From positions 1 through 26,142 of IMG/VR virus record IMGVR_UViG_3300043448_001075: DNA of 26,142 nt; one strand, given 5' to 3'. The stretch comes from a virus. This document shows, in pieces, positions 1,704-18,432 of this stretch; positions within the stretch are counted from its first letter, which is position 1; each line of letters starts with the position of its first letter. The notes under the pieces were generated by a model. It made no database searches. It had not been told where the DNA came from and saw nothing but the letters and a program-made list of their open reading frames with translations. The position numbers and the translations under genes are program-made.

Positions 1704-2374
1704 ATGTTAAACTTATCTCCTACTCCCAACCCACTGAGGAATTTAGATCTAACGGTATCGAGGATGCGCAGGACCTTGTTGCTTTCTGCGCCCGTGTCTC
1801 CAATCCAAGCAATCAGCTCAACACGGAGACAAGCGAACGACTCATCAAATACTTGGTTAAGCACCAACACTGGAGCCCACTGGAAATGGTCAGTGCCTGT
1901 GTCGAAATCACAACCACAAGAGACATTGCCCGACAAATACTCAGACACAGAAGTTTTAGTTTCCAAGAGTTCAGCCAGCGATACGCTGACCCTACTAAAG
2001 ACCTCTCGTTCGTATTTAGAGAAGCCCGTTTGCAGGACACCAAAAATAGACAAAACAGTATTGAACTCGATGCTACCATTGAACATAGTATACTCAGAGA
2101 ACAGTGGATTCAACAACAAGAAGAAGTCATTAAGGCCGCTAGAAAAGCCTACACTTGGGCTATTAATAACGGCATAGCAAAAGAGCAGGCTCGTGCTGTA
2201 TTACCTGAGGGTATTATGGAAAGTAAACTATATATGAATGGTACACTGCGTAGTTGGATACACTACATTGAACTACGCAGTGCTAATGGCACACAATTAG
2301 AACATCAGGAAATTGCTAAGATTTCTGCTCAAGTAATAGCCAAAGTATTTCCACTAGTTTCAGATATTACATAA
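1700..2374 (+). CDS. thyX: FAD-dependent thymidylate synthase ThyX
   Basis: A 224-aa protein, the usual size for ThyX. It carries the signature RHRSFSFQEFSQR at residues 82-94, matching RHRX7S with the final Ser at 92 that polarises dUMP. The enzyme methylates dUMP to dTMP using methylenetetrahydrofolate, FAD and NADPH, and phages use it to supply thymidine nucleotides for replication. The C-terminal region (KEQARAVLPEG, then RSWIHYIELR) also fits the family. The start overlaps the preceding stop in ATGA. The first half of the gene is distinctly richer in GC than the accessory block (about 52% in 1741-1800). Its 3' end overlaps the convergent rSAM gene by 46 bases. Confidence 0.95.
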   Translation: MNVKLISYSQPTEEFRSNGIEDAQDLVAFCARVSNPSNQLNTETSERLIKYLVKHQHWSPLEMVSACVEITTTRDIARQILRHRSFSFQEFSQRYADPTKDLSFVFREARLQDTKNRQNSIELDATIEHSILREQWIQQQEEVIKAARKAYTWAINNGIAKEQARAVLPEGIMESKLYMNGTLRSWIHYIELRSANGTQLEHQEIAKISAQVIAKVFPLVSDIT

Positions 2375-3531
2375 CTTTTATCACCTGGCCATAATGGCAG
2401 CTGAGTTCCTGGAGCCCTTTTAGGTATTTTACTATCTGCACTACTAACACAACTAGGACTTGAACAAGGTTTTGGACTGTCATATAATTGAAAACCTGTT
2501 TCAATATTTCCAATAGGCTTATCATAACAACTATAACTACGTTTGATGCTGCCATCAGGCTCTCTAATAATTATTCCTCTATAGCCGCTACTACATTCCC
2601 AACCATCAAACTTATTAAAGTTAAAGGCATTAAATCGTTCTGCCTGATCCATATACCAAATTTTATTTTTAGAATCAACAAACTCTACTTGAAAATGTTG
2701 TGGTATTTTATTATGTTCTTGTTTAAAAATAGGATCTGGAGTTTTAAAAAATTTAGGCTCTGGTCTTGTAACTTTTTTAGATCGTGTTGATTTATCCTCA
2801 GTATAAGCTCTTTGAGGCATTCCATTATGCAGTTTAGCCAGCATTTCCTTAGTATACCCTTCAACCACTCTACTGGCTGTTGGATCACTCTGTGGTTTTA
2901 ATGTTACATTAATACCTTGATTATGGAAAAATAAAGCATTATCAAAATCTCTATCAAACCATTCAGGAACCATAACCATATTAATAGTAATTTGTACATC
3001 ATGTTCTTGGCATAATATAAGTTTATCTGCAAATTCCTGCATTTTTTCTTTTGTATTCACATGCTCTGTGTGTAGACTTGCTGTAATACTTGCCCTATGA
3101 AATTTACTTACAGCAGGACAATATTTTTCCTCAAACCATTTAATTGGTCTACTCATATTACTGGTCATATGAACACTTGTGTAGTTGGTATTTTTTACAT
3201 CATCATTTAAGTATGCAAGTATGTCTGTATATCCTGGATGGAATGTTGGCTCACCGCCACTTAAACTAAAATGAAAGCTGTTAAAATTTCTATCTCTTGC
3301 TTGCCTTTTTATTTCATCAATAGTTTTAAGACAAAGCTCAGTTGGTCTATGATCTTTTGTATCACTACGAGCGTATGGCCAACAATAACTACATCTGTAA
3401 TTACAATATCTTCCTAATAACCAACTTACTGTAAAAAGATCTTTATACAACATTGTCCTTTGACCTACCCGTACAATATCATCATAAGGGATAGCAGTAA
3501 AATCATAAGCACTCCAACTAAGTTCACTCAT
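2329..3531 (-). CDS. Radical SAM protein with C-terminal twitch/SPASM-like domain, 400 aa
   Basis: A radical SAM enzyme that would cleave S-adenosylmethionine at a [4Fe-4S] cluster to make a 5'-deoxyadenosyl radical. The cluster ligands are C43, C47 and C50 in CNYRCSYC, and the SAM-binding GGEP is at 92-95. After the core, at about residues 290-370, comes a region with C313, C335, C356 and C361 (WECSSGYRG, SYSCYDKPIG), resembling a shortened SPASM/twitch domain that could bind an auxiliary Fe-S cluster. The same arrangement is found, but split into two genes, at 8657-9690. It begins inside the end of the upstream dehydrogenase gene through ATGAGTGA (8-base overlap), and its 3' end runs 46 bases into convergent thyX. 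It is the last gene of the - strand run. Substrate unknown. Confidence 0.9.
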   Translation of the reverse strand: MSELSWSAYDFTAIPYDDIVRVGQRTMLYKDLFTVSWLLGRYCNYRCSYCWPYARSDTKDHRPTELCLKTIDEIKRQARDRNFNSFHFSLSGGEPTFHPGYTDILAYLNDDVKNTNYTSVHMTSNMSRPIKWFEEKYCPAVSKFHRASITASLHTEHVNTKEKMQEFADKLILCQEHDVQITINMVMVPEWFDRDFDNALFFHNQGINVTLKPQSDPTASRVVEGYTKEMLAKLHNGMPQRAYTEDKSTRSKKVTRPEPKFFKTPDPIFKQEHNKIPQHFQVEFVDSKNKIWYMDQAERFNAFNFNKFDGWECSSGYRGIIIREPDGSIKRSYSCYDKPIGNIETGFQLYDSPKPCSSPSCVSSADSKIPKRAPGTQLPLWPGDKSYVISETSGNTLAIT

Positions 3532-4087
3532 AATTCACCTGCATGGGATCTATACTTATTTCATTAATACATATGTCTTTTGGTTGATCTATCAACCATT
3601 TAATATATGCTGCTGCACGTTCAATTGGCATACATTTCCTTGTTGGATGTTTATCTTGTACATTACTTAGCGAACCAAAGCTGATTAGACTAATTTTTGG
3701 GCCATTACTCCATACTCCGTTTAAACCAAGAGTATTACAATAATCACGCAATGCTTTCTTTTCTGCATTATACAACCAAGCTCCACCCTTTTTGACTCTA
3801 TCAGTTGTAGATCCTATACATATTATATGCACTTTATGATTATTATCTATGCAAAACTTATAAATTTGATCCAATAATACTGTTTGATTAAACTTGTATA
3901 AAGCACTACAATTAATTATAGTATCAAAATTTCTAATAAGTGTAACAAATTTTTTTTGATCTTCTTGACGTGTTAAATCATATCCAGAAGATCTGCTTGC
4001 AAAAAATGCTTTCGGGTACAGTGTAAATAATTCTTTAGCTAACCCATAATTTTTATTACCTGCTACAAGAATATTAGATCCAGTCAT
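3524..4087 (-). CDS. Short-chain dehydrogenase-like (SDR) NAD(P)-binding protein, 187 aa
   Basis: A 187-aa protein with features of a short-chain dehydrogenase. There is an N-terminal beta strand and glycine-containing turn (ILVAGNKNYG, residues 6-15), a strand with NCSA at 59-62, a candidate catalytic Ser in CIGSTTDR (S93), and a Y-x3-K pair at Y106 and K110 (YNAEKKA). The nucleotide-binding loop lacks the standard TGxxxGxG spacing, and the protein is shorter than typical SDRs (about 250 aa), so cofactor use is uncertain. A role in reducing or epimerising a sugar or other small molecule is inference from the glycosyltransferase and rSAM neighbours. It overlaps the upstream rSAM gene by 14 bases and the downstream one by 8. 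Confidence 0.7.
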   Translation of the reverse strand: MTGSNILVAGNKNYGLAKELFTLYPKAFFASRSSGYDLTRQEDQKKFVTLIRNFDTIINCSALYKFNQTVLLDQIYKFCIDNNHKVHIICIGSTTDRVKKGGAWLYNAEKKALRDYCNTLGLNGVWSNGPKISLISFGSLSNVQDKHPTRKCMPIERAAAYIKWLIDQPKDICINEISIDPMQVNYE

Positions 4088-5246
4088 TAAATTCCTTCAA
4101 ATTATCTAAAATAGACTCTTGTCTACTATTATCCAAAGCATTTGTATACTCTTTAAACTTATCCCAATACTTTTGATTCCAATCTTCAGCAAACATATAA
4201 TCAATTATACCTTGTACTTTGCTAATTTTTAAATAAGGTAAAAGACGTTGTTTAGCTTGTTCTTTTAAAGGCAAAGGTAATGCTCGTATATTCAAATGTT
4301 CTGGATGATTTAAAATATTAAAATATATATTTTTAATTTGATTTTGACTGAGATAATCTAAAAATTTATCTATATATAAAATATTATATACTTGCACAGT
4401 ATTATGAACTTGCAATTCAAAGTTACCCTGTTGCTCAAGCTCCTTAAATTTAAGTAAATTTTTCTCAACAAGACTCCACCCCGTAGGATACCTTATATAC
4501 CTATTTAAATCTCCAATTGCATCAATACTTGCATTGATTTTAACTTTTTTAAAGTGTTGCCAATAATCCACAAGTTTTTTAGGTAAATTAGTGCAATTAG
4601 TATTATATTTCAAACTTATACCTTTAGCTAAACCTAACTCAATAAGTTTATCAAATAATTTATATTGACTAATGGCTAAAGTTGGTTCCCCTCCCGTTAA
4701 ATATATTTCTTGGATACTTTTAGCAAATAATAACAAATTCTCAGCCACTTTATCGTCATCTGGCCATTTCATTGTGGATAAAAATATTTTTTCCATATCA
4801 GGTAATGTTTTTTCAATTAAATGCCATTCATCAACCCATTGATTACTTGCATATGGATTGCACATTCTGCACTTTAAATTACACAAATTACCTAATCTAA
4901 TATCTACATACTTAATATTTAAAGGCGGTGTTATGGATTCCTCATAGTCAAACATCCATTTATCATTCCAACTTTGTCTGGCAGACTTAATTCCTATATC
5001 CTCTTCTCTAAAACATCTAACACACATATCTGGTTTTTCATTATTCAAAAACTGAGTTCTTATTGTTTTTAATGTTTGGCTATTCCAAAAATTTACAGCA
5101 TCTTTGTCTGTAATATGATAGGGCTTACCGTTATCTCTTAAAATTTGATTTTTACCTGGTGTACTATTGCAGCATACTCTTAATGAACCGCTTGCATTAG
5201 TAGCTAAATGCATCCATGGCAAAATACAAAATGTTTTATTACTCAT
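4074..5246 (-). CDS. Radical SAM protein with N-terminal twitch-like domain, 390 aa
   Basis: This belongs to the unusual group in which a cysteine-rich twitch/SPASM-like domain precedes the radical SAM core. The N-terminal domain has C7 in FCILPW, the pair C25-C26 after a glycine turn, and C75/C78 in NEKPDMCVRC. The core cluster motif CNLKCRMC is C122, C126 and C129, and GGEP is at 185-188. The N-terminal cysteines probably hold an auxiliary Fe-S cluster; that is inference from SPASM/twitch proteins. The C-terminal 100 residues are helical and contain no cysteine. It starts at ATGAGTAA overlapping the oxygenase gene's stop. The same opening pattern recurs in the genes at 7375, 9683, 12198, 13463 and 14857, pointing to repeated duplication. 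Substrate unknown. Confidence 0.9.
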   Translation of the reverse strand: MSNKTFCILPWMHLATNASGSLRVCCNSTPGKNQILRDNGKPYHITDKDAVNFWNSQTLKTIRTQFLNNEKPDMCVRCFREEDIGIKSARQSWNDKWMFDYEESITPPLNIKYVDIRLGNLCNLKCRMCNPYASNQWVDEWHLIEKTLPDMEKIFLSTMKWPDDDKVAENLLLFAKSIQEIYLTGGEPTLAISQYKLFDKLIELGLAKGISLKYNTNCTNLPKKLVDYWQHFKKVKINASIDAIGDLNRYIRYPTGWSLVEKNLLKFKELEQQGNFELQVHNTVQVYNILYIDKFLDYLSQNQIKNIYFNILNHPEHLNIRALPLPLKEQAKQRLLPYLKISKVQGIIDYMFAEDWNQKYWDKFKEYTNALDNSRQESILDNLKEFNDWI

Positions 5247-5979
5247 AATTTAATTGCTTTAATAAATTGTCATAGCTTCTACATATAATTCTATTGAATT
5301 CATCTTTGGCTGCTCCATGTATTATCATATGTATACGTGGTTCAGTTCCTAAATGCCTGACACAATGATACCTACCTATATCAATTGCCCTAACATCTCC
5401 AGGACTCCAAGGTATCATTCCGCCATCTTCCATTATAAATTCGACTCCATGTGGATTATTTAATGCTACGTTATATGCAGCTAACTTTCTTATCTCAAAA
5501 TCTTTATGAGGCATAATATACCCATTAGGTTCTAATAACATATATCTTACCCGATCATACCTCGCAAAAGGAAATACTTCTTTGAGCCAAGATATAGTAA
5601 TAGGCACTTTATCTTTAATCTCTGTCCAATCGTATTTAGGTTTTTCAGTAAAATTATATTCTTCTGCATTCCAATCATTAGTTGTGTGTTTGTTATAACC
5701 ATGTATAACTAAACTTCGCCATCCGCTACTATGGTTTTCTCTATGCTTTATAAAATCATCAATTAAATTATGTGCTTCTACATACATTTCTTTATAAGGT
5801 ATGTCTATATCTAATTTTAGACTTGGACAATTACTTTCCAACTCTATCCATTTAGAATATTGCATCATTAAATTATTACTTGTATTCCAGTCATTAAAGT
5901 GCTTAGGAGGTTGATTGATACTGCTGTAATGATCATATGAATACCACTTAGAAGCGAATTCAATTATTTTTTGATCCAT
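5239..5979 (-). CDS. Aspartyl/asparaginyl beta-hydroxylase-like Fe(II)/2-oxoglutarate oxygenase, 246 aa
   Basis: A 246-aa protein whose C-terminal 110 residues match the aspartyl/asparaginyl beta-hydroxylase family. Candidate metal ligands are H158 (with D160, in PHKD) and H205 (in HCVRH), and the 2-oxoglutarate-binding arginine is R215 (EPRIHMI). The H158-H205 and H205-R215 spacings (47 and 10) are close to those I recall for human AspH. The strand LNNPHGVEF and turn PGDVRAID lie between, as expected for a double-stranded beta-helix. Such enzymes hydroxylate Asp, Asn or Pro residues or small molecules. The N-terminal 125 residues are not recognised. It sits between the 469-aa unknown (16-base overlap) and an rSAM gene (8-base overlap), so it may act on the same product. 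Confidence 0.82.
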   Translation of the reverse strand: MDQKIIEFASKWYSYDHYSSINQPPKHFNDWNTSNNLMMQYSKWIELESNCPSLKLDIDIPYKEMYVEAHNLIDDFIKHRENHSSGWRSLVIHGYNKHTTNDWNAEEYNFTEKPKYDWTEIKDKVPITISWLKEVFPFARYDRVRYMLLEPNGYIMPHKDFEIRKLAAYNVALNNPHGVEFIMEDGGMIPWSPGDVRAIDIGRYHCVRHLGTEPRIHMIIHGAAKDEFNRIICRSYDNLLKQLNYE

Positions 5980-7373
5980 GGTAATATGTCTAACTCTTTA
6001 GTTTTTTGCAAATAAATTTCTGGTTTCGAGAGAATTTCTTTAGGTGTATTACCTAACCATGACATATTAATACCTGGTCTGGTATTGTTTATATAAATTC
6101 TTTCTGCTCCCTTTACTGCCAATTTTTCTAACAAATCTCTTTCTATAGCATATCTACTTTCAGAATTGTATAACCAAGAAGATCCATGATAATGAAATAT
6201 ATTAGATAAGTGCAAAAATACATTATCTTGTTGATCAAACCAATCTAAACACCAAGAAATATCTTGATAAAATATATTTTTATTATGAAACCTAAATTCT
6301 AACTTTGGCCATACATTTTCAATAAAATCATTTAGGTCTGAAGTTTTACGCCAATAGTCTAATTGTTTATTAAAGATGTCTAAATTTGAAGTAGCTTTCA
6401 TAATCTTTAAAATTTCATCAGTTGGGTCAATATGTTTACATACATCATAAAAATCTTTTTTGATATCTTTAAAATTAGATTTAGATGATATATAAGTTTT
6501 TTGTATCTTCAATGCTAAAGGGCTTGCATCAAAAACAATCACTTTATTACCAGGTTTTAATTTACACCTCCATGAAATCAATAAAGGAGTAATACCTCCT
6601 GCGGTACACATAACTCCTTTAAATCCGTTTTCAGGTAATCTTATTTGTTCATAAGTTTCAGTATTAGCAGCAAAATGAAGATAAAATTGATTATCATCTA
6701 TAATATTACCCCATTTAGTAAATGTATCACTTACTTCAGGATATATATAGTATTTTGATCTACGCAAATCTTGGTTAAAACTTTTTATTTCACTATACTC
6801 AATAGCTTTTTTAATAATGTTCCACCCAAATTTTCTGCCAATATAACTTTTACTAACAATACCTTGATTAATCCAATGTGGTGTATAATCATCATGCCAA
6901 TTTTCTTCACTTCTATAAGGTTGAATAGTTTCCCATGTGACTCCACGATGTTCAAACCCTATTTCAGGTTTATTTACTGATTGCCACCAAGTTATATTTA
7001 CTACAAAACATTGATGGTGTAATTCGTAAAATTGATCCTTTTTATCTAAAATATGTCCTAATATAGTAAAATTTGGATTATCATCTATATATTTTACTAA
7101 GCTATCTATAAAATTTGATCTTTCACTTAAATTATTACCAATAGCAACTACAATTAAATATTTTACATTATTATCAGCAGCCCAATGTAATATATTGTTA
7201 GGATCATTATCTATATGAATTTTTACAGGATAATAAGAAAGTTCTTGTACCCAAAATTCTGTAATATTTTGACTGAAGGTTAGAGCAGTTTGGTTTTTAA
7301 TCCTATTAGATATATCATACCAACCAATCGCTAAATTTTTTTCTCTATACTTTTCTTTAGAATAAAACTGCAT
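5964..7373 (-). CDS. Two-part protein of unknown function with possible glycosyltransferase-like and SAM-binding halves, 469 aa
   Basis: I do not recognise this protein as a whole. The N-terminal half (about 1-200) has a hydrophobic strand KYLIVVAIGNN, then TILGHILDKKDQFYELH and QCFVVN. This resembles a GT-A-like glycosyltransferase fold without a classic DxD. The C-terminal half has VMCTAGGITPLLISW (254-268) followed by KVIVFDASPLAL (277-288). That looks like motif I and the acidic end of strand 2 of a class I SAM-dependent methyltransferase, although the glycine spacing is atypical. The end is Trp/Tyr-rich (NIFHYHGSSWLYNSES). No cysteine cluster or membrane segment is seen. It lies between an rSAM gene (one-base gap) and the oxygenase gene (16-base overlap). 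Both half-domain calls are tentative. Confidence 0.6.
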   Translation of the reverse strand: MQFYSKEKYREKNLAIGWYDISNRIKNQTALTFSQNITEFWVQELSYYPVKIHIDNDPNNILHWAADNNVKYLIVVAIGNNLSERSNFIDSLVKYIDDNPNFTILGHILDKKDQFYELHHQCFVVNITWWQSVNKPEIGFEHRGVTWETIQPYRSEENWHDDYTPHWINQGIVSKSYIGRKFGWNIIKKAIEYSEIKSFNQDLRRSKYYIYPEVSDTFTKWGNIIDDNQFYLHFAANTETYEQIRLPENGFKGVMCTAGGITPLLISWRCKLKPGNKVIVFDASPLALKIQKTYISSKSNFKDIKKDFYDVCKHIDPTDEILKIMKATSNLDIFNKQLDYWRKTSDLNDFIENVWPKLEFRFHNKNIFYQDISWCLDWFDQQDNVFLHLSNIFHYHGSSWLYNSESRYAIERDLLEKLAVKGAERIYINNTRPGINMSWLGNTPKEILSKPEIYLQKTKELDILPWIKK

Positions 7374-7374
7374 A

Positions 7375-8664
7375 TTAAGTACCTTGAACTTTTAAATTAA
7401 TTTTATTATTGAATTCCGTAAATCTATTGTAATTTTGTTCATGTTTATTGTTAACTATACATTCATCTATCCAATTAATAGCATCTTCTATATGTCTTTT
7501 AAGATTAATATTATAAAGCGAATCATCTATAATTTGGCTATTTTTAATTATAAGTTTATTTTTAGCAGCAATTAAAGAATCAGTATGTAATACATTAGCA
7601 TGTAAAAAATCAGGCCATTGAAGTCTTGAGGTGTGCCAATCTATTTTCATCTCATTTTGAATAGCTTCTATTGTATCTACCAAATGTTCAACATTATATG
7701 CTGAAATGCATGTACTAGCTCTAATGTAATCTAATTTTTTACCCAAACCCTGCTTTACTGTTTCAATATTATTTTTAATGTCATCCCAATCAGAACCTTG
7801 TCTAATATATGAATTTAAATCTTTGTAACCATCAATACTTATGGTAAGCTTTATTGCTTTAAACTTTTTCCATAAATCAATAATATTCCGACCTTTTTTG
7901 GCTTCCAAGTTAGTTAAATTAGTACTATACTTCAAAATTACGAGATGGGGTTTTGGTATTCTTTCTAAAACTCTATAATGTAAAGGATCCATAAGAGGCT
8001 CACCCCCTGCAAATTCAAATTCTTTTATAGTGGGCAAAAGTTCTTCAATATCTTGTAAAAACTGTTCATTAGTTTCAAATAAATTTAATATGGGTTTATT
8101 TTTTAAGTTATTTTTTTCTATTATATCGTTTATATAATTCTGTTCGCTCTCTTTATAAAATGATTTAACATTATCCCAATCTCTTACCCAGGGGGTACTA
8201 TCCTTAGGCCAACACATTCTACACTTAAGATTACATAGATTACTTAATTTTAGTTCAATTATAGGTATATTATATGGTAAATTTTTTGTATTTACATAAT
8301 CATTTACAAGATAGCCATACTTAGATATACGTTCAAAATTTTGAGTTTGTCTAAGACTTACAATATTATTTTCTTCCATCTTCCAACAAGCAGTGCAATG
8401 CTCATCCTTAATACCATTAATAAGATTATTCCTTACATTTTTATACTTTTTATGATTCCATAATTCCTTAATACTTGTTTTGTTAATGTCCCATATTTTA
8501 CTACTTCTGCAACATAATCTAAAATCTCCATTAGTAGTAGTGCTACTATGTATAAATGGCATTATACAAAAAGTATTGTCATCTACCTTTATATCAAACT
8601 TTTTTTTAAAGTACCGACTTGGTTTATATGCTGATATCTGGGATTTGCCCAAACTTTTAGTCAT
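7375..8664 (-). CDS. Radical SAM protein with N-terminal twitch-like domain, 429 aa
   Basis: The N-terminal auxiliary domain has C33 in FCIMPF, the C51-C52 pair and C90/C93 (EHCTACW). The core motif CNLKCRMC is C144, C148 and C151, and GGEP is at 220-223. It has about 30 extra basic residues before the first twitch cysteine that its relatives lack. The insert between the core motif and GGEP is also long (about 68 residues, acidic and Asn/Lys-rich). A strand with YSTNLTNLE and then ISIDG follows, as in the other cores of the run. The start overlaps the stop of the separate twitch gene in an 8-base ATGACTAA. A distinct substrate or partner from its paralogues is possible but not shown. Confidence 0.88.
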   Translation of the reverse strand: MTKSLGKSQISAYKPSRYFKKKFDIKVDDNTFCIMPFIHSSTTTNGDFRLCCRSSKIWDINKTSIKELWNHKKYKNVRNNLINGIKDEHCTACWKMEENNIVSLRQTQNFERISKYGYLVNDYVNTKNLPYNIPIIELKLSNLCNLKCRMCWPKDSTPWVRDWDNVKSFYKESEQNYINDIIEKNNLKNKPILNLFETNEQFLQDIEELLPTIKEFEFAGGEPLMDPLHYRVLERIPKPHLVILKYSTNLTNLEAKKGRNIIDLWKKFKAIKLTISIDGYKDLNSYIRQGSDWDDIKNNIETVKQGLGKKLDYIRASTCISAYNVEHLVDTIEAIQNEMKIDWHTSRLQWPDFLHANVLHTDSLIAAKNKLIIKNSQIIDDSLYNINLKRHIEDAINWIDECIVNNKHEQNYNRFTEFNNKINLKVQGT

Positions 8665-8992
8665 TTCCTATCCTTAATTTAGCAATATGATTTAATTGCG
8701 CCTTACTTAATTGTATATCTGCTGCACAAGTACAAGATTCTTTAGTACAAATTATAGGGTCAGTTGGGACTTTAAAGTCATCATAAATTGTACCTAATTT
8801 TCCACCCACACGGCATATTGCCCGCCAAACATTCCCTTCATTATCAATAGTAATATTTTGTACACCTGCCCAACACAACCAACCTTTGAATTTGTTTGTT
8901 TCATTTGCTAATAAGTCATTAACATTTGACTCATTAGAAGATCCGTTTTCATAATGAACTATAATATTATTCCAATTAGTTGCCTTAGTCAT
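8657..8992 (-). CDS. Stand-alone twitch/SPASM-like domain, C-terminal half of a split radical SAM enzyme, 111 aa
   Basis: A 111-aa protein with C40 (GWLCWAGV), C60 (WRAICRVGG) and C82, C87 and C89 near the end, probably ligands for an auxiliary Fe-S cluster. It has no radical SAM core of its own. It lines up with the C-terminal region of the intact 400-aa enzyme at 2329 (WxCxxG, then DGS/EGN, SYSC/RAIC, G.I, a C-rich end and ADxxxxK). The core it should partner is encoded directly upstream at 8989-9690, overlapping by ATGA. It may therefore be a natural two-subunit arrangement, a recent one-base frameshift, or a sequencing error; the first would be functional as a complex. Confidence 0.72.
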   Translation of the reverse strand: MTKATNWNNIIVHYENGSSNESNVNDLLANETNKFKGWLCWAGVQNITIDNEGNVWRAICRVGGKLGTIYDDFKVPTDPIICTKESCTCAADIQLSKAQLNHIAKLRIGND

Positions 8993-9690
8993 TTCGATAC
9001 ATTCAGAATAAAATCTAATTCTTCTTCAGTATAGTATTGATCAGTACTTTTGCCATGAACTGTTTTCATTCCACTGAACCCTGGGTTGGCCCAAGTCTTC
9101 ATAGTTGGATCTATTCTTGGTCTTATTCTTCTAATTACCCATTTTATATCATGTTGATTCATTAAATCTATAATTTCCATAGCTTGTTGCATTTTTCCTG
9201 GTAAGTACATCAAATGTACATGTAAATTTTTATCCTTAAAATCTTTTAACTTTTCATTTAACGAAATAATAGTATTAATTATTTTATCATGATATGCAAA
9301 CTCAAAATGATAGCTGAAAATATAATAATTCATATACTCTATGCTATCAATATACTTATTTAAAGGTAAACTACCGTTAGTAGTTACACTTATTTTAGAT
9401 ATTCCATAACTTTTAATAAGCTTAAGTATTTCAATTATTTTAGGATGAACGAAAGGTTCACCTCCTGTAAGACTAATCCTACAACTTTTCCTTTGCAATG
9501 TGGCAGCTTCCGCTATTTTACTGATAGTTTTTTCTATTGTTTCTAATGATAAATGACTACTTACATTGTCATGTATATCACTTCCACAATAACTACAATC
9601 ATAATTACATCGTTTACCTAAATTCCATTCTATACGTAACCATTTATCTTTTGGAGGATGATTATCCTCTATTGCTACAATCTCAGTCAT
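8989..9690 (-). CDS. Radical SAM core, N-terminal half of a split enzyme, 233 aa
   Basis: A 233-aa radical SAM core with cluster ligands C28, C32 and C35 (CNYDCSYC) and GGEP at 76-79, followed by a TTNGS strand (about 103-107). It ends shortly after YTEEEL, the point where the 400-aa relative at 2329 has YTKEML and continues towards its twitch domain. The missing C-terminal domain lies in the next gene, in a frame one base back, and the two overlap by ATGA. It is shorter than most single-gene rSAMs of this type. Its start is in an 8-base overlap (ATGACTGA) with the 840-aa gene. Activity probably needs the 111-aa protein; that is inference. Confidence 0.82.
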   Translation of the reverse strand: MTEIVAIEDNHPPKDKWLRIEWNLGKRCNYDCSYCGSDIHDNVSSHLSLETIEKTISKIAEAATLQRKSCRISLTGGEPFVHPKIIEILKLIKSYGISKISVTTNGSLPLNKYIDSIEYMNYYIFSYHFEFAYHDKIINTIISLNEKLKDFKDKNLHVHLMYLPGKMQQAMEIIDLMNQHDIKWVIRRIRPRIDPTMKTWANPGFSGMKTVHGKSTDQYYTEEELDFILNVSK

Positions 9691-12205
9691 TCCAAAAATC
9701 CTTTAATTCTGGAATCACATCTAAAACTTTTTCATTTCTAATTCTATCAAGAGCTTTAGTAAATTGCTTGAATGTAGTCCAATGTTTTAAGTTATCATTA
9801 TTATCATTTAAAGAATTAATTAGAGATTGAAAATCAGAAATGTTTGCTAAATTACTTATAGCTTGTAATCTAAGTTGTTCTGGCATAACTGTTGGACTTA
9901 GATATATAGGTGAGTTACAAATAGTTTCAAAAGCATTGGAATTATCAACATTCTTATATTTTACTGACCAAGATTGTAATAATTTATAAAGTTCGTGTAA
10001 ATTTAACAAATTATAAGCCTGCATAGTTACATTGAATCCAATTTCTACATTTGGTAGCTCATTATACATACTTATAACAGATTCTAATTCTTCAGTAGTA
10101 TACTTTCCACCTCTTATATACTTGTAAAGCTCACCGGTACCCTCTATACTAAACATTAATTTAACATATCTAAATTTTTCTAACAATTGAAGTATTTTTG
10201 GATTTACTACAGTTCCATTAGTAGTATACACTAATGCTATATCTTTGTTAAATCCATTTTTAATTAAATGTTCCAAAAATGGAACATTACTTTTAGCTAA
10301 CATTGGCTCACCACCTTTAAAATCTATGCGTCTTAATGTATTAAGGTGTGGAGTTAGCTCAGTAAGATTTTCCATTTCCTGTTGAATAATAACTTGATTT
10401 TTTGGATTGCCTTCCCTATGCCATTTAGTATTCATTTTAGATAATAATTGATCCTCCTCAAACCACTGATTGCTAGCCCATGATCCACACATTCTACACT
10501 TTAAATTACATACATTACTAAGATTGATATCCATTTGAACAAATTTTAAATTTTCCTTAGTTAATGGTTTTTGGTAATAATCATTAGGAACTGAAAAGCT
10601 AAATTTTTCATCAAACCATTTTCTTCTACTTTTACCAATTAATTGTTCTCTTTCCCAGCAACTACCACATTCTACAGGCTTTTCATTATAAATAAATTGA
10701 TCTCGTAATTTTTGCATTTTAGGATTATTAATAAAATTATCAATTATATTATCTTTACTTGCTGTTCCTATTGACCCCCTAAACTGACAACATGGCTTAA
10801 TATTATCATTAGCCGTTATAGTTATAGCATGCCATGGCATTTTACAAAATGTTTTCTCTCCTGATTCATATTCTATGAAGTAACTTTCAAAACTTTTATA
10901 TATTCCAGGAGCAACATCTTTAAGACTTTGATTTCTAATTTTATCTAATTCTACTGTATATTTGACAAATTGTCTATGACCGTGTAAAGAATAAGTATTA
11001 ACAGGATTAGCTACAAGATCAGATAGTAGTTTTTTTATATCAAGTAAATATCTTGCTTCTGAGATAGGCTGTTTGCCATTAACTCCAGAAATCCATGGAT
11101 ATTGTTTTAGTAAGTAATTTACTTGTTCAAGACTATCATGTAATGTATCTAAAGATAACCATTGAACATGTAACGATCGTGGACCTGCTAGTACTCTGTG
11201 CTCAAAACTATGCCTATTTTTACTACTTGGAGTTGGTGGAGACTTATCCCATTCGTAAAAATGAAATATCCATTCAATAAAATCTTTTATGTTTAATGCA
11301 TTTAAACTTTGAAAAGTTCCGTTAATATTCAACTTGTAGATACCTGATCTGGGTTTTTCACACCAATCCTTAATTAATTTTGCTTTTTTAACTATACCAT
11401 CCCAATCAATAATACCTGCACTACGCATATAAACAAAAAGATCACCAGTTGCATCTAAACTCAAATTAATATTAACATACTTAAATCCTTCTAAAGCTTC
11501 AAGGTGGTCTTCAGTAATTACACTCCCATTAGTAGTAATCATTAATTCTATTTGTTTGTCTAATCCAGACTTCCTAAGCATAGATAAAAAATCCATGAAT
11601 TGCGGAACGAGAAATGGCTCACCACCTAAAATTTCTACTCTACGTAAATCTTTACCATTATCAACTATTTCCTGTAATTGTTCAATATTAAGAGTATGTT
11701 TACGAGCGTTAAATGTATTACTTGGTCGTATTTCTATAGATCCTGCACCACCAGGTGCTATTCCTTTAGTTTTAAGTTTTTCTTCATCACCTATCCATGC
11801 ATTACTATAAGCACTTGAACACATTCTACACTTAAAATTACACAAATTATTAAATGCTATATCTAAGTGAATAATTTTATTATTTGTTAAATTATTATCC
11901 CAGTCAATATCATTCCATCTATCTTCAACAAGTCCTATGTTCTGCCAATGAATTCGTTTACTTGTTATTTGACGTTCTTCTTTTATACGACAATTTCTAC
12001 ATCCATCTGTCCAAACACCTTCTCGTTGAGCTTTTCTGAGTTTTTGAAAATTTTCATTATCCCATTGTTTTATGATAGATCCATTTTTAACATCTCCCAT
12101 ATCATGTTCGCTCATATGACAACGAACAATTTTACCAGTGGCATGTATAGCTATGCTTGAAACTGGAAGCATACAAATTGTTGGACTTAATTTTTTGTTA
12201 CTCAT
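9683..12205 (-). CDS. Tandem double radical SAM protein with two twitch+core units, 840 aa
   Basis: One continuous ORF encodes two full units of the N-terminal-twitch rSAM type. Unit 1 has C11 (ICMLPV), C29, C69/C72, core CNFKCRMC at C122, C126 and C129, and GGEP at 194-197. Unit 2 has C454 (FCKMPW), the C472-C473 pair, C513/C516, core CNLKCRMC at C566, C570 and C573, and GGEP at 631-634. Unit 1's first twitch site has RCH where relatives have CC, so its auxiliary cluster may differ. The two cores share recognisable strands (YVNINLSLDATGDL near 243 and YVKLMFSIEGTGEL near 657). Residues about 310-440 are a linker-like, Trp/His-rich segment. It is roughly twice the length of its relatives. It starts in ATGAGTAA overlapping the upstream rSAM gene. 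I infer a gene fusion after tandem duplication. Confidence 0.9.
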   Translation of the reverse strand: MSNKKLSPTICMLPVSSIAIHATGKIVRCHMSEHDMGDVKNGSIIKQWDNENFQKLRKAQREGVWTDGCRNCRIKEERQITSKRIHWQNIGLVEDRWNDIDWDNNLTNNKIIHLDIAFNNLCNFKCRMCSSAYSNAWIGDEEKLKTKGIAPGGAGSIEIRPSNTFNARKHTLNIEQLQEIVDNGKDLRRVEILGGEPFLVPQFMDFLSMLRKSGLDKQIELMITTNGSVITEDHLEALEGFKYVNINLSLDATGDLFVYMRSAGIIDWDGIVKKAKLIKDWCEKPRSGIYKLNINGTFQSLNALNIKDFIEWIFHFYEWDKSPPTPSSKNRHSFEHRVLAGPRSLHVQWLSLDTLHDSLEQVNYLLKQYPWISGVNGKQPISEARYLLDIKKLLSDLVANPVNTYSLHGHRQFVKYTVELDKIRNQSLKDVAPGIYKSFESYFIEYESGEKTFCKMPWHAITITANDNIKPCCQFRGSIGTASKDNIIDNFINNPKMQKLRDQFIYNEKPVECGSCWEREQLIGKSRRKWFDEKFSFSVPNDYYQKPLTKENLKFVQMDINLSNVCNLKCRMCGSWASNQWFEEDQLLSKMNTKWHREGNPKNQVIIQQEMENLTELTPHLNTLRRIDFKGGEPMLAKSNVPFLEHLIKNGFNKDIALVYTTNGTVVNPKILQLLEKFRYVKLMFSIEGTGELYKYIRGGKYTTEELESVISMYNELPNVEIGFNVTMQAYNLLNLHELYKLLQSWSVKYKNVDNSNAFETICNSPIYLSPTVMPEQLRLQAISNLANISDFQSLINSLNDNNDNLKHWTTFKQFTKALDRIRNEKVLDVIPELKDFWND

Positions 12206-13466
12206 AATTTAATAGTTTTGCCATTTTTGAGAAAGTCTTGACAAAGCTTTCATTACGTGCTTTATCAATAAAATCAATTTCATATTGTCGTTTTTTGTCT
12301 AAATCTTCACTCCAAAAATCTATACTATTCATAAATTCTAAAGCATCATCTATAATTTTATGATATTTTGTTTGAATTTTAGATTTTGATTTGGTTAAAT
12401 GCTGGGTAATAACTTGTTTTACATCACTATGTAATCCTCTTACGTTCCAAATACCATCTACTGAAGTAACATAATGTGGTATAATAGATGTAATAAATTG
12501 CATATCCTGGACTTCCATAAGAAATTCATCTAAAGTAAAGATATTAAAAACACTTATAGTAGGATCTAAAGTAGTCTTATAATTTGTTTTACCACAAAAG
12601 TATTTTAAATTTTCTTTTACCTCATTCCATGACCCGCCTTTCCTCTGGTATTCAAACTTATCACCAAAGTCATCTATACTCAAAAACCATATAATATTTT
12701 TAAATTTACTATATAATTCTTCATCTTCTTTATTTGGAATTATAGTGCCATTTGTATTATACCATATATCGATTTGCTTTGGATCAAATCTTTCTGATAT
12801 AATTTTAAGCATCTCATAATGTTCTCTGATCATTAAGGGTTCCCCGCCCATTAAATGAATAATTCTTATATCATCAAATTTATCAACATTACGCCAAAAA
12901 TCTATATCATCTATCCATTTAGCTTGTCTGTTATAAAATAACTCAGGGCTTTGTTTAAATATAGGATAATCTTTCTTCAATGACTTATTAATATCATAAG
13001 TTTCTTTTAACCATTTTGAACTATTCCATAATCCACATATTCTACAAGCAAGATTACATCTGTTACCTGCCTTAATTTCAAGCCATAACAAATTTTGTTT
13101 AGGAGCACTCTCATTGTTAGCAATTGCTAAAACTTTATCTATTAAAAGAGAAGATACTGAATACATATACCTGCCAGAAAATTTATCATTTTGAAACTTA
13201 CCCCAACACGGTTTACAAGCAGGATTATTTTGATTATTTAAAAATGACTCACGAAATTCAATATGCGTAGGATGATCAATTATATCTGATATAGATTTTT
13301 CTGCAATATTCAAATTAGTACCATCTTGATTTTTTAATGGATGGGCCAAGCAACAAGGCTTTACGTCGCCATTAGATTCAATTGTAATATGAAAAAATGG
13401 CATGGCACAAAAGTTTGTTTTATCTAAATAATTATATACTACCTGTACTTGTTGTTCATTTGTCAT
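12198..13466 (-). CDS. Radical SAM protein with N-terminal twitch-like domain, 422 aa
   Basis: The twitch-like N-terminus has C20 in FCAMPF, C38-C39 (KPCCLAH) and C84/C87 (NPACKPCW). The core is CNLACRIC at C137, C141 and C144, with GGEP at 207-210. Compared with its neighbours it carries about 12 extra residues ahead of the first cysteine (MTNEQQVQVVYNY). A strand with YNTNGTI and then LSIDD follows GGEP, as expected for the partial TIM barrel. The C-terminus ends in LLNYE. This arises because the last codons AAT TAT GAG TAA contain the next gene's ATGAGTAA start, a junction seen repeatedly in this run. The start overlaps the upstream gene by ATGA. Substrate unknown. Confidence 0.88.
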   Translation of the reverse strand: MTNEQQVQVVYNYLDKTNFCAMPFFHITIESNGDVKPCCLAHPLKNQDGTNLNIAEKSISDIIDHPTHIEFRESFLNNQNNPACKPCWGKFQNDKFSGRYMYSVSSLLIDKVLAIANNESAPKQNLLWLEIKAGNRCNLACRICGLWNSSKWLKETYDINKSLKKDYPIFKQSPELFYNRQAKWIDDIDFWRNVDKFDDIRIIHLMGGEPLMIREHYEMLKIISERFDPKQIDIWYNTNGTIIPNKEDEELYSKFKNIIWFLSIDDFGDKFEYQRKGGSWNEVKENLKYFCGKTNYKTTLDPTISVFNIFTLDEFLMEVQDMQFITSIIPHYVTSVDGIWNVRGLHSDVKQVITQHLTKSKSKIQTKYHKIIDDALEFMNSIDFWSEDLDKKRQYEIDFIDKARNESFVKTFSKMAKLLNYE

Positions 13467-14860
13467 TTAAATATATCCTTCATTTCAGGAAATACATTAA
13501 CAAATTGTAAGTTCCTATGCTGATCAATTTTACTAAGATAATCCTGCATTTCTGGTAATCTTATTGACCAGTCTTCACTTTTCATAAATTTAATCATACC
13601 TCTTAATCTTTTTATACCATATTGATTGTTTAGCCAAGCATTTTTACCTACTCTACGCCTGTCTTTTTCTGCTAAACATAATTGCCAATTTTCTTCAAAC
13701 CATGGTATAAACTCTTCATATTTACGTTCACATTCATCTTTAAACCATTGAGGAAGAACTTTGACGTTTAAAAAAGCGGGCCAATAAACAAAATGATAAT
13801 TAATACCACCTGCTCCTAAAGGCCACATGTTAACTTTCTTAAAATTTTGTAGTAGTTTCCAACGTAAAAAATCTGGAACATAATATATATTTAAAGCTTG
13901 TACTGCACAGGCAATAGTTATTTCAACATTATCAGAAGTTTGCTTATCAAGTATATGAAATACTTCCTCAGTCCGTTCCCATTTGCTGGGATATCTTATA
14001 TACTCGTTCATTTTGAAAATACTATCAACGCTGTAATGATAACGAACAATTTTAAAATGTTTCCATAAATCAAATAAATCTTCTCTCCATTCTACACCGT
14101 TACTATTATATCTAATTTCTATATCTTTGGCTCGACCTTGACGTATTATTTCTTCAAGTATTTCATAATGTTCATCAATAATTAAAGGTTCCCCACCCGC
14201 AAAATAAACTTGTTGCATGTTAGGAATTTGATCATAAAATTGCTGCCAAAATATTGGATTATTTTTGTGCCAATTATAACTGCTACCATTTGTGCTACCT
14301 TTATTTTCCCACTGCCATATTTTACGCACAGATTCATTTTCTATCTTAGGATAGATAGCTTGCCAATCTTTGATCCAACCACTACTGTCATGCGGGCTAC
14401 ACATAATGCACCCAAGTTGACACTTGGTTCCAAATCTAAGATCTATATAACTTAAAAATGGAGGAACTGTTCCATCATCTTCTGTATCAGATATTAATTT
14501 GTTAACATCTACTCGCTGCGCCCAATAATCTGTTTCCCATTGACGTTTACTTTGATGTCCTGATTCTTCTTCTTTATAACATTTCAAACAACTTGGCGGC
14601 TTCTCACCTGCAAGCATTTGTTTCCTTACATTTTTCATATAAGTACTATTCCATGCTGTTTGAAAATCCATTACATTAAGATTACTGGGTAAACCTAATT
14701 CGTCCTTAATTACTCCTACCTGTCTACCACCTATTTTTTTATCATTAGTAGGCCCTACACCACTGGCATTAGCTGTACAACATACACGCATACTACCATC
14801 AGGTCTGGTGCTTAAGTGTGTCCAAGGTAAAATACAAAATGTTTTAGAAGGAAAATTCAT
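13463..14860 (-). CDS. Radical SAM protein with N-terminal twitch-like domain, 465 aa
   Basis: The longest single-unit member of the run. Twitch-like cysteines are C9 (FCILPW), C27-C28 and C91/C94 (PPSCLKC). The core is CQLGCIMC at C147, C151 and C154, and GGEP is at 222-225. Extra length comes from a Gly/Asp-rich insert at about 30-65 inside the twitch domain and a Trp-rich insert at about 160-215, between the core motif and GGEP. The C-terminal third is also rich in Trp and aromatic residues. After GGEP comes YNSNGVEW in place of the usual YNTN/TTNG. It overlaps both neighbours by ATGA. The start at FPSKTFC aligns with the openings of its relatives. Confidence 0.88.
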   Translation of the reverse strand: MNFPSKTFCILPWTHLSTRPDGSMRVCCTANASGVGPTNDKKIGGRQVGVIKDELGLPSNLNVMDFQTAWNSTYMKNVRKQMLAGEKPPSCLKCYKEEESGHQSKRQWETDYWAQRVDVNKLISDTEDDGTVPPFLSYIDLRFGTKCQLGCIMCSPHDSSGWIKDWQAIYPKIENESVRKIWQWENKGSTNGSSYNWHKNNPIFWQQFYDQIPNMQQVYFAGGEPLIIDEHYEILEEIIRQGRAKDIEIRYNSNGVEWREDLFDLWKHFKIVRYHYSVDSIFKMNEYIRYPSKWERTEEVFHILDKQTSDNVEITIACAVQALNIYYVPDFLRWKLLQNFKKVNMWPLGAGGINYHFVYWPAFLNVKVLPQWFKDECERKYEEFIPWFEENWQLCLAEKDRRRVGKNAWLNNQYGIKRLRGMIKFMKSEDWSIRLPEMQDYLSKIDQHRNLQFVNVFPEMKDIFK

Positions 14861-16111: not shown

Positions 16112-17263
16112 TTACAATGCATCTCCTAAAGCAAAACCAATAAATCTTCCCCAGTGCTTGTCTTTATCAGCCTTATCTTTAATGTATCCTCTTAAATTAT
16201 TAAACTGATCAAACTCGGGATGAGTAGGTTTCCATACTGCATGTTCATCAAAATTGTCAAAACTTCCCCAATCCATAATTAAATTAAAACATAATTTTAC
16301 ATTTTTTTCTGGAATATCATAAAATATACTATTGAATAAATCTATAAAATTAACCATTTCATTGTAATTACCCTTTTGCACAATAAAATACAGTATCATA
16401 AGTGTATCAGAATTATTTTCCTTAATTTTACTTGTAAGCATTAATAAATTAGCTAATAATATGTCCCAATCACCACCTGGGCGTAATTTATCGTATGTTT
16501 CCTTTGTTGCTGCGTCTACTGTAATACATATATTTTTTATTTTATTATGCCATTTAGACATTTTATTCCAATACTTTTCAGTAAACAAAACCCCGTGTGT
16601 TACAATCTCCAATTGTAAATTTGGCCAAGGGGTAGGATCAAAATTTAATAAAAACTCTCTTGTAGATTTACTATAAAAAGCATCTCCAGCTCCATTAGTT
16701 TTAATAATAATATTTTCATTTCTGGGAACACTGAATATAAAATTAACTATAGATTCTATTCCTGCATCAAACTTTTTTTGCATTTCCTCATCACTATTAA
16801 AATCTATTTTGTGACTTCTACAACTTGGACAACTCAAGTTACAACTTGTATCTAAGTTAATAGCTATTTCTATAGGTATAGGCAAATGTGTTTTTATATC
16901 TGTTTCTTTAACATCAGTTAAAACATCATTTACAATCATAGGACATATTGTATGCATACAATAATTGTATGATCCATTTAATATACTTTCTCTAATCAGT
17001 CTAATTTTATCATTTATCCAAATATCTTTCAAATTTTCATAGAATATATTTCCTACTGGATAGGGCATATGTGCTACACAACAGGTATGAACAGAACCAT
17101 TTGGATCTACTTCTATTGAAGTAAAAGGTTTATTGCAATATTTTCCCTTAAGATCTTTCTTATCCTTTTGATCCTCGCTGAGATTTTGAATATTTACATT
17201 ACCAAATATAGGATCGTGTTTAGTAGTCCTCTCTCTGTATATTTTTATTATTTTTGAATCCAT
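16112..17263 (-). CDS. Divergent radical SAM protein with N-terminal twitch/SPASM-like domain, no GGEP, 383 aa
   Basis: The N-terminal cysteine domain has C43 (YCNKPF), C61-C62 (TCCVAH) and C102/C107, with GNIFYENLKDIW between, as in SPASM-type regions. The core is CNLSCPSC at C141, C145 and C148. There is no GGEP; the equivalent strand near 188-197 reads IKTNGAGDAF, so SAM binding must use a variant motif. A later strand CITVDAATKETYDKLRPGG fits the barrel. It has about 40 charged residues before the first cysteine that other members lack. It is close in type to rSAM/SPASM peptide- or sugar-modifying proteins, but the substrate is not known. It lies two bases after the stop of the 388-aa rSAM gene. 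Confidence 0.82.
   Translation of the reverse strand: MDSKIIKIYRERTTKHDPIFGNVNIQNLSEDQKDKKDLKGKYCNKPFTSIEVDPNGSVHTCCVAHMPYPVGNIFYENLKDIWINDKIRLIRESILNGSYNYCMHTICPMIVNDVLTDVKETDIKTHLPIPIEIAINLDTSCNLSCPSCRSHKIDFNSDEEMQKKFDAGIESIVNFIFSVPRNENIIIKTNGAGDAFYSKSTREFLLNFDPTPWPNLQLEIVTHGVLFTEKYWNKMSKWHNKIKNICITVDAATKETYDKLRPGGDWDILLANLLMLTSKIKENNSDTLMILYFIVQKGNYNEMVNFIDLFNSIFYDIPEKNVKLCFNLIMDWGSFDNFDEHAVWKPTHPEFDQFNNLRGYIKDKADKDKHWGRFIGFALGDAL
16123..16127 (-). promoter_or_regulatory. Ribosome-binding site deciding the start of the 417-aa rSAM gene
   Basis: AGGAG on the - strand lies inside the final codons of the upstream rSAM gene. It abuts the ATG at 16122 directly, too close to serve it, and is 12 bases before the ATG at 16110. 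This, with the alignment of MSNTFC to related N-termini, favours 16110. Confidence 0.5.
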
Positions 17264-17265
17264 TT

Positions 17266-18432
17266 TTATGTAAATTGTGCTTTAAATGCATCGTATTTAG
17301 TACCACAAATCTTAGCACAAACTGCCAATTTACCATCCGAACAACTTGTTTTATTCCAACTGTTTGGAATAAAATCTTGAAAATAAAGTCCTTCTACAAT
17401 ATCATCTAAACTATTTTTAATAGCATTTAAATTATCTTTTCCAACCTTTTCTATTAAGTTCCATATTTGCGTACTTTTAGGAGTATGATACCAAACATAC
17501 ATTTGGCCCGCTGTCCAACAACAAGGCTGCACTATTCCTTCTGCACTGATATATATGCTTTTTTCTTCTGCAACTTTACAATTAATTATAGCATTATCCC
17601 AAACTTTTTCAATTGCTTTCTTTTTATTTTCATCTTTATGAAATATTTGAGGAGTTATTTCTATATCTCGTACTTTGCTTGGAATTATTTTGATTGTTTC
17701 GTCACCTTTTGCAAATTCACTGATTTGATCTATAACAATGTTTCTATATTTAGGATTATTAGGAGCCTGTAATAAAGTTGTATATACTCCTTTTCTATTA
17801 CTGGCTTGATGCATTTCCTTTGTTACTCCACTAATATTACTAAAGAATCGTGCAGATTTTTTGAATTGAAATCTTTCGAAACCCATTATTTTACTTAACT
17901 CTTCTGCTTGTTCTACTTGATGCTCATTATGAGCAAAAACTATATAGTCCCAACGTGCTCGACCACCTGCTTGAATAAACGCAGCAGCATTTTCCATTAT
18001 TTTTGACCATATAGTATTTTGTCTATATAAATGATTAGTGTCCTCTAAACCATCAATACTAAAAACTACATATCCTTTACGCCCTAAAACTTTAGCTAAA
18101 TCAGCCCACCATTCTGGTTTTTTAGCACTTCCGTTTGTATGTAAACTTAACATTACATTTTTATTATTACTTCTAAAATATTCAAAAATTTGTAATGTGT
18201 CTTTGGCAGCTATAGGATCACCGTAATTGCCACACATATAGATTCTATCTAATTGCTGTATAAATGAAGGTTTAAAAATCTTTTTAATATCATTAATATA
18301 CAATTCTGTGTTAGGTAATTGTGGATTGTCTTCACCACCGTTTATATTTCTTGCACACATAGGACAGGCAGCATTACAGGAGTCAGTGACTTCAAGATGA
18401 ACAGTTCTAATGTCTTTATATCTATATAACAT
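17266..18432 (-). CDS. Radical SAM/SPASM-type protein with C-terminal auxiliary-cluster domain, 388 aa
   Basis: The core motif lies very near the start: CNAACPMC at C19, C23 and C26. The SAM-contact strand reads CGNYGDP (67-73) instead of GGEP, as in some SPASM-family members. The next strand is HTNGSAKK and then FSIDGLEDTNHLYR. The C-terminal domain has C285, C304-C305 (QPCCWTAG), C364, C372 and C376, enough for at least one auxiliary [4Fe-4S] cluster. This is the conventional order (core then SPASM), unlike most of the run. It is the first rSAM gene in transcriptional order and overlaps the 74-aa gene in TAATG. Its substrate is unknown; peptide modification is typical of SPASM relatives but is not shown here. 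Confidence 0.88.
   Translation of the reverse strand: MLYRYKDIRTVHLEVTDSCNAACPMCARNINGGEDNPQLPNTELYINDIKKIFKPSFIQQLDRIYMCGNYGDPIAAKDTLQIFEYFRSNNKNVMLSLHTNGSAKKPEWWADLAKVLGRKGYVVFSIDGLEDTNHLYRQNTIWSKIMENAAAFIQAGGRARWDYIVFAHNEHQVEQAEELSKIMGFERFQFKKSARFFSNISGVTKEMHQASNRKGVYTTLLQAPNNPKYRNIVIDQISEFAKGDETIKIIPSKVRDIEITPQIFHKDENKKKAIEKVWDNAIINCKVAEEKSIYISAEGIVQPCCWTAGQMYVWYHTPKSTQIWNLIEKVGKDNLNAIKNSLDDIVEGLYFQDFIPNSWNKTSCSDGKLAVCAKICGTKYDAFKAQFT

What the first reader, a model, noticed from the sequence alone, without database searches (positions are those of the whole stretch)
9683..12205. One polypeptide with two complete twitch+rSAM units
The 840-aa gene carries two sets of twitch cysteines, two CNxKCRMC motifs and two GGEP motifs in one reading frame. 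Two rSAM active sites fused in series in one chain are rare. They could process a substrate in two steps, or the first unit (with RCH replacing the usual CC pair) could be a non-equivalent partner.
Basis: seen in the sequence. Interest (0 to 1): 0.72.

Follow-up and report, generated by a model that had tools for sequence, protein, structure and literature searches.

The report
Two fused radical-SAM enzymes in phages
A marine bacterial virus makes one long protein holding two complete radical enzymes; relatives encode the same two enzymes as neighbouring overlapping genes or as one fused gene, which marks them as working partners in a large enzyme pathway of unknown product.

Summary
An 840-aa ORF (9683-12205, minus strand) carries two complete twitch + radical-SAM units of NCBIfam NF033640, each far above the family cut-off and with every cluster ligand intact. 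It is not an assembly error. Eight other IMG/VR contigs carry the same fusion in the same gene order, and so does one Bdellovibrionales MAG. The units are two old, distinct subfamilies (U1, U2), not a recent duplication. In a sister phage (L193) and two Bdellovibrionia MAGs they are separate neighbouring genes overlapping by 8 nt, so fusion arose at least twice on the favoured tree. U1 orthologues always have U2 beside them; U2 often occurs without U1. "RCH" is not a lost cluster: only the second, non-ligand Cys of CC is missing, throughout the U1 clade. Most likely both sites are active and act as partners on one substrate, U2 doing a core step and U1 an added one. Precedents are FbiC (two rSAM domains fused) and TrnC/TrnD (two rSAM enzymes in one complex). 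The substrate is unknown; a glycan or glycosylated surface component is favoured weakly. The fusion sits in a cassette with 11 rSAM cores, much of it shared by jumbo T4-type phages and Bdellovibrionota.

The parts
9683..12205 (-). 840-aa fused gene with two N-terminal-twitch radical SAM units
   Evidence: fusion conserved in 8 other IMG/VR contigs and MAG G010
10886..12205 (-). Unit 1 (U1, residues 1-440): twitch + rSAM core
   Evidence: NF033640 243.7 bits; U1 clade 100*
11981..12184 (-). Twitch 1 (C11-X12-G24-X4-C29 ... C69xxC72); second Cys of CC replaced by His30
   Evidence: BtrN alignment
11819..11842 (-). rSAM motif 1 CNFKCRMC (residues 122-129)
11615..11626 (-). GGEP motif 1 (residues 194-197)
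10853..10933 (-). Junction/linker between units (residues 425-451), no stop; length and sequence differ among fused relatives
9686..10864 (-). Unit 2 (U2, residues 448-840): twitch + rSAM core
   Evidence: NF033640 292.8 bits; U2 clade 99*
10649..10855 (-). Twitch 2 (C454, C472 C473, C513, C516)
10487..10510 (-). rSAM motif 2 CNLKCRMC (residues 566-573)
10304..10315 (-). GGEP motif 2 (residues 631-634)
8989..9690 (-). Split rSAM, N-terminal core half (233 aa), close to U2 in most relatives
8657..8992 (-). Split rSAM, C-terminal Cys-rich half (111 aa); joined with the N half in L011 and L098
7375..8664 (-). Twitch rSAM w6 of the shared block
   Evidence: 298.4 bits
5964..7373 (-). 469-aa protein w5, weak GT-A-like plus methyltransferase-like fold
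5239..5979 (-). Asp/Arg beta-hydroxylase-like protein w4
   Evidence: PF05118 1.5e-08
4074..5246 (-). Twitch rSAM w3 of the shared block
   Evidence: 378.2 bits
3524..4087 (-). 187-aa protein w2, labelled SDR-like by eye only; directly upstream of stand-alone U2 in most of the stand-alone-U2 phages
   Evidence: Pfam gives only a sub-threshold DUF1477 match
2329..3531 (-). rSAM w1, unsplit counterpart of the split pair
12198..13466 (-). Twitch rSAM w10, directly upstream, overlapping the fused gene by 8 nt
13463..14860 (-). Twitch rSAM w11
   Evidence: 416.2 bits
14857..16122 (-). Twitch rSAM w12
   Evidence: 346.8 bits
16112..18432 (-). Two further rSAM genes (16112-17263, 17266-18432)

Best explanation
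The protein is a genuine covalent fusion of two partner enzymes. U1 and U2 are two old subfamilies of the N-terminal-twitch radical SAM family (NF033640) whose genes sit next to each other; where unfused, the stop of the first overlaps the start of the second, so an indel of one or two bases can join them. Shown here: both units are complete, conserved, under purifying selection, and fused in two lineages. Inferred: each unit binds one SAM-cleaving [4Fe-4S] cluster and one auxiliary cluster and makes its own 5'-deoxyadenosyl radical; the two work as an enforced 1:1 pair on one substrate, U2 carrying out a core step and U1 a further step (FbiC-like), possibly through direct subunit contact (TrnC/TrnD-like). 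Inferred more weakly: the substrate is a sugar or glycan, or a glycosylated component, made or modified by the surrounding cassette of 11 rSAM cores plus hydroxylase-like and glycosyltransferase-like genes.
For: Both units match over full length with all ligands intact. The fusion recurs in 8 other phage contigs and one bacterial MAG. Unfused pairs stand at the same place, with 8-nt overlaps GTGAATAA (G008, G009) and ATGAATGA (L193). U1 and U2 form separate clades, 100* and 99*; careful U1 tree: phage fused clade 100/99*, unfused L193 sister 97/94*, fused L097 grouping with unfused Bdellovibrionia 94/95. Every U1 orthologue on a contig long enough to judge has U2 adjacent; U2 without adjacent U1 in L194-L202 and L204-L206. 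dN/dS below 1 in both units. Fold: AlphaFold model, best matches CteB, SkfB, anSME, DesII at Z about 12 for the U1 core. Precedents: FbiC (PMC11917521), TrnC/TrnD (PMC12093266). Glycan hints: fusions of the same family to Wzt-type ABC ATPase and to sulfotransferase + aminotransferase, w5 fold, carbamoyltransferase and NTP-transferase genes near the cassette in G001.
Against: No activity, substrate or complex has been shown. dS is saturated between the window and its relatives, so dN/dS is only qualitative. The U2 tree pairs fused L203 with unfused L193 (90/91), so the number of fusion or fission events is 2 to 3, and ancestral fusion with two later splits is not excluded. The model's pTM is 0.57, so the mutual arrangement of the units is not known, and the structural matches hardly test unit 2. 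Fold similarity is as good to peptide maturases as to sugar enzymes.
Confidence: 0.55

Rival explanations
1. Obligate asymmetric complex: only one unit does the chemistry and the other positions the substrate or supplies electrons, as reported for TrnC/TrnD, where only TrnC's rSAM activity is strictly essential.
For: Precedent PMC12093266; repeated fusion fits permanent partners.
Against: All SAM-cluster and twitch ligands are conserved in both units and in nearly all stand-alone relatives; U2 occurs without adjacent U1 in many phages, so U2 does not need this partner everywhere.
Confidence: 0.25
2. Fusion without functional coupling: two independent enzymes of one pathway joined by chance because their genes overlap, kept because the fusion is harmless.
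For: Overlapping twitch rSAM pairs are common and other pairs fuse too: L223 and L274, a different subfamily pair.
Against: The U1-U2 fusion arose in two lineages and persists over deep divergence (units 58-73% identical within the phages, 41% over the chain to the MAG); U1 was never seen without adjacent U2.
Confidence: 0.2
3. The cassette modifies a peptide or protein (RiPP-like or post-translational modification) rather than a sugar.
For: Closest solved folds are sactisynthases CteB and SkfB, and anSME; an Asp/Arg beta-hydroxylase-like gene is in the block; weak w5 similarity to collagen hydroxylysine galactosyltransferase.
Against: No peptide-binding (PqqD/RRE-type) domain was found by Pfam in the cassette proteins scanned; no precursor gene was recognised, though ORFs under 80 aa were not searched; glycan-type fusion partners occur elsewhere in the family.
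Confidence: 0.3
4. Assembly or sequencing artefact that joins two genes.
For: Unfused versions exist with an 8-nt stop/start overlap, where an indel of one or two bases would join the frames.
Against: Eight other contigs carry the fusion, from eight metagenome identifiers and in at least three distinct sequence variants, with linkers of different length.
Confidence: 0.01

Closest known systems
NCBIfam NF033640, N_Twi_rSAM (twitch domain-containing radical SAM protein)
   Same: Each unit is a full-length member: 243.7 and 292.8 bits against a cut-off of 170.
   Different: The family model is a single 398-position unit; here two members of different subfamilies share one chain.
FbiC (fused CofG-CofH FO synthase)
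   Same: Two radical SAM domains in one polypeptide, using two separate deoxyadenosyl radicals for one product; separate CofG and CofH polypeptides are typical of archaea (PMC11917521).
   Different: Different rSAM subfamilies; FbiC is not known to carry twitch domains (own knowledge); here the fusion is phage-borne and the substrate unknown.
TrnC/TrnD (thuricin CD sactisynthases)
   Same: Two related rSAM enzymes with auxiliary clusters that form a tight complex and act together (PMC12093266).
   Different: Separate proteins that act on known peptides; SPASM-type auxiliary clusters rather than an N-terminal twitch (partly own knowledge).
BtrN (twitch rSAM dehydrogenase of butirosin synthesis)
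   Same: Twitch with a matching Cys-Gly-Cys ... CxxC pattern; weak sequence match (E 0.013; profile 6e-4).
   Different: BtrN's twitch is C-terminal to the core; here it is N-terminal. BtrN is single-unit.
rSAM gene cassettes in marine T4-like phages (TARA_ERS488813_N000010 with 12 rSAM genes; pelagimyophage rSAM cassettes)
   Same: Many rSAM genes in T4-type marine phages (PMC5332604; PMC7029224).
   Different: In the passages read, those reports name no fused double rSAM gene and no link to Bdellovibrionota clusters; their gene sets were not compared one by one here.

Membership tests
NF033640 N_Twi_rSAM | Score above curated cut-off (170 bits) over the full model | tested here: met
   243.7 and 292.8 bits for the two units
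NF033640 N_Twi_rSAM | N-terminal twitch with four cluster Cys, then rSAM CxxxCxxC and GGEP | tested here: met
   Conserved in both units and in U1-clade and U2-clade relatives, apart from one divergent U2-side row
Radical SAM superfamily (PF04055) | Pfam match and (beta/alpha) barrel fold | tested here: met
   PF04055 8e-30, two stretches; U1 core Z about 12 to CteB, SkfB, anSME; U2 little covered by the match list
FbiC / FO synthase | CofG and CofH domains | tested here: inconclusive
   No FO synthase model among the 25 best of 40 NCBIfam hits; 15 hits not shown
BtrN-type twitch dehydrogenase | Twitch located C-terminal to the rSAM core | tested here: not met
   Twitch is N-terminal in both units
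BtrN-type twitch dehydrogenase | Oxidises a sugar-alcohol type substrate | not testable with these tools
   Needs biochemistry
RiPP rSAM/SPASM maturase | Peptide-binding RRE/PqqD-like domain in or beside the enzyme | tested here: not met
   No such Pfam match in the fused protein or the other cassette proteins scanned; divergent RREs can escape Pfam
RiPP rSAM/SPASM maturase | Adjacent short precursor peptide gene | tested here: inconclusive
   Genes are closely packed; only ORFs of 80 aa or more were listed

The most novel reading that the evidence does not exclude
A phage-encoded two-active-site radical SAM enzyme that performs two linked radical steps inside a roughly ten-gene radical enzyme pathway shared between jumbo marine phages and Bdellovibrionota, making a previously unknown cell-surface or virion modification; repeated fusion of neighbouring rSAM genes in this family would then mark physical rSAM-rSAM complexes.
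Probability: 0.3. Interest if true: 0.8.

Novelty: new variant of a known kind. Interest (0 to 1): 0.5.

Why it matters
Double radical SAM chains are rare, FbiC being the main characterised case (own knowledge plus PMC11917521). Here nature supplies a clean comparison: the same two enzymes fused, separate but overlapping, or with one missing, in otherwise matching gene order. That makes it directly testable whether rSAM enzymes work as physical pairs. It also points to a pathway rich in rSAM enzymes, shared by phages and Bdellovibrionota, whose product is unknown.

Tried and rejected
Artefact hypothesis: rejected. Recent internal duplication: rejected, the units are 26% identical and each groups with stand-alone members of its own subfamily. 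Degenerate twitch in unit 1: rejected. A first IMG/VR scan with the single protein found nothing; the first genome-contig scan with the fused alignment found none. Cultured phages hold only distant homologues, about 25% identity. The first 20-row structure alignment smeared single U1 proteins over both halves and was discarded. A reported 796-aa open frame in G001 looked like another double rSAM fusion but is two separate ORFs. L214 was labelled 'separate', but its contig ends inside U1, so it says nothing about fusion. Literature searches found no description of this fusion in the open-access library. The Foldseek library of viral predicted structures was not searched.

Full report
WHAT IS THERE. 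The ORF at 9683-12205 is on the minus strand and encodes 840 aa without interruption. NF033640 (N_Twi_rSAM) matches it twice over nearly the full 398 positions, 243.7 bits for unit 1 and 292.8 bits for unit 2 (cut-off 170). Pfam finds two Radical_SAM and two SPASM stretches. The window, a 26-kb IMG/VR virus fragment, holds 11 rSAM cores in 10 genes.

NOT AN ARTEFACT. Seven IMG/VR contigs of 39 to 236 kb carry the same fusion at 67-68% identity with the same neighbours, and an eighth, L203, carries a fused 863-aa version. A Bdellovibrionales MAG (L097 = G010) carries an 876-886-aa fusion, 42% identical over residues 5-836. Both units look to be under purifying selection: dN 0.22-0.35 with saturated dS for window against phage relatives; between the near-identical L088 and L090, dN/dS is about 0.08 in unit 1 and 0.45 in unit 2, the latter on few changes.

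HOW IT AROSE. U1 and U2 are not a recent duplication: 26% identical, and in an 84-row tree they fall in two clades, U1 (10 rows, 100*) and U2 (11 rows, 99*), each containing stand-alone proteins; the clades are sisters at 90. In Bdellovibrionia MAGs G008 and G009 the orthologues are separate genes overlapping at GTGAATAA, in a cluster with the same split rSAM and w6 downstream. In phage L193, with the same gene order as the window, they are separate and overlap at ATGAATGA. In the careful U1 tree the fused phages form a clade (100/99*) with unfused L193 as sister (97/94*), while fused L097 groups with unfused L095/L096 (94/95). Two independent fusions (2 changes) are more parsimonious than one ancestral fusion with two splits (3). 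The U2 tree joins L203 to L193 (90/91), so recombination or a third change is possible. A different pair of the same family shows the same behaviour: L223 and L274 are fused, while L057, L081 and L242 have the two genes separate and overlapping by about 14 nt. Those two are single contigs, so an indel error cannot be excluded there. In all, 8 of 704 distinct ORFs with a complete unit have two.

DISTRIBUTION. Every U1 orthologue on a contig long enough to judge (window, 8 fused phage contigs, L193, three MAGs) has U2 adjacent. U2 without adjacent U1, 49-52% identical, is found in L194-L202 and L204-L206, with no close U1 elsewhere in those checked, though all are fragments. In L204 the order is w12, w11, w10, U2, as in the window minus U1. 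Among 369 genomes of the G009 phylum only G008, G009 and G010 carry the U1-U2 pair at this level. U1 thus looks like an addition to a U2-centred pathway.

THE RCH POINT. Over 303 diverse units, 263 have Cys at the second position of CC; the U1 clade lacks it in 10 of 10, stand-alone members included, while the four ligand positions are intact. The published motif CX9-15GX4C (PMC6231123) fits C11-X12-G24-X4-C29. BtrN, fully ligated by four Cys according to that paper, aligns with Phe at the second position. RCH is a subfamily mark, not a lesion.

FOLD. The AlphaFold2 model (mean pLDDT 79.2, pTM 0.57) has secondary structure consistent with two twitch + barrel units; VIA-align gives CteB, SkfB, anSME, DesII, viperin and MoaA at Z 11-12 for residues about 90-400. 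Unit 2 is little covered by that list, and the relative placing of the units is not reliable.

CONTEXT. U1, U2, the split rSAM pair, w3, w6, w10, w12, the Asp/Arg hydroxylase-like gene and the 469-aa w5 protein have relatives in phage cassettes and in Bdellovibrionota clusters. Three of the phage contigs carry a T4-type gp23; the window's UvsX is closest to jumbo phages Phosso and Atu_ph07 (66-71%). In G001 a carbamoyltransferase, an aldolase-like protein and an NTP-transferase/kinase-like protein lie near the cassette. Other members of the family are fused to a Wzt-type ABC ATPase (L149) or lie in one chain with sulfotransferase and aminotransferase (L110). The w5 model resembles GT-A transferases and methyltransferases, weakly. 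These hints favour a glycan-related substrate, but the nearest solved folds include peptide maturases, so this stays open.

MECHANISM. Shown: two intact units, partner genes, repeated fusion. Inferred: two SAM-cleaving sites, two auxiliary clusters, action on one substrate. FbiC (PMC11917521) is the precedent for two fused rSAM sites making one product; TrnC/TrnD (PMC12093266) for two rSAM enzymes acting as one complex. Because U2 occurs without U1 but not the reverse, I favour a core step by U2 and an added step by U1. Confidence is about 0.55 for active partners on one substrate and lower for any particular substrate.

NOVELTY. Large rSAM cassettes in T4-like marine phages are reported (PMC5332604; PMC7029224). 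I found no report of this fusion or of the shared block with Bdellovibrionota in the library searched. It is a new variant of a known kind.

Noticed in passing
8657-9690: A radical SAM enzyme is split into two overlapping genes (233-aa core, 111-aa Cys-rich tail). The split is conserved in phages and Bdellovibrionota, while L011 (2289-3266) and L098 (1285-2274) have it as one gene, and in L194-L199 one or more other genes sit between the halves.
   Followed up: partly
5964-7373: 469-aa protein without Pfam match; motif GHILD..H.Q..S.E..HDDYTP.W conserved across phages and MAGs. Model suggests GT-A-like plus methyltransferase-like domains.
   Followed up: partly
L274 2657-5224; L223 2624-5230: A second, different pair of twitch rSAM genes fused into 856- and 869-aa chains; close relatives keep them as overlapping genes. 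Their nearest kin are unfused, so the two fusions look independent.
   Followed up: partly
L149 4708-7275; L110 5071-9918: Twitch rSAM units fused to a Wzt-like O-antigen ABC transporter ATPase (Zetaproteobacteria MAG) and to sulfotransferase plus class III aminotransferase (Synechocystis salina).
   Followed up: no
L098 (NZGL01000008.1): A contig binned as a Gammaproteobacteria MAG has the same rSAM gene order as viral contig L011, so it may be a phage contig in the bin.
   Followed up: no
19578-21177: Two overlapping paralogous genes (about 225 and 309 aa) without Pfam match, possibly glycosyltransferase-like by eye; homologues recur near the cassette in G001.
   Followed up: no
L203 2585-5173 and L193 2683-5161: U1 and U2 trees disagree on L203 (fused) versus L193 (separate), which hints at recombination inside the fused gene.
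   Followed up: partly
L175, L176 (G010 contig C47): The Bdellovibrionales cluster with the fused gene is flanked by aconitase-, HMGL-, aminotransferase-, MmgE/PrpD-, B12-binding rSAM- and asparagine synthase-like genes, suggesting small-molecule biosynthesis.
   Followed up: no
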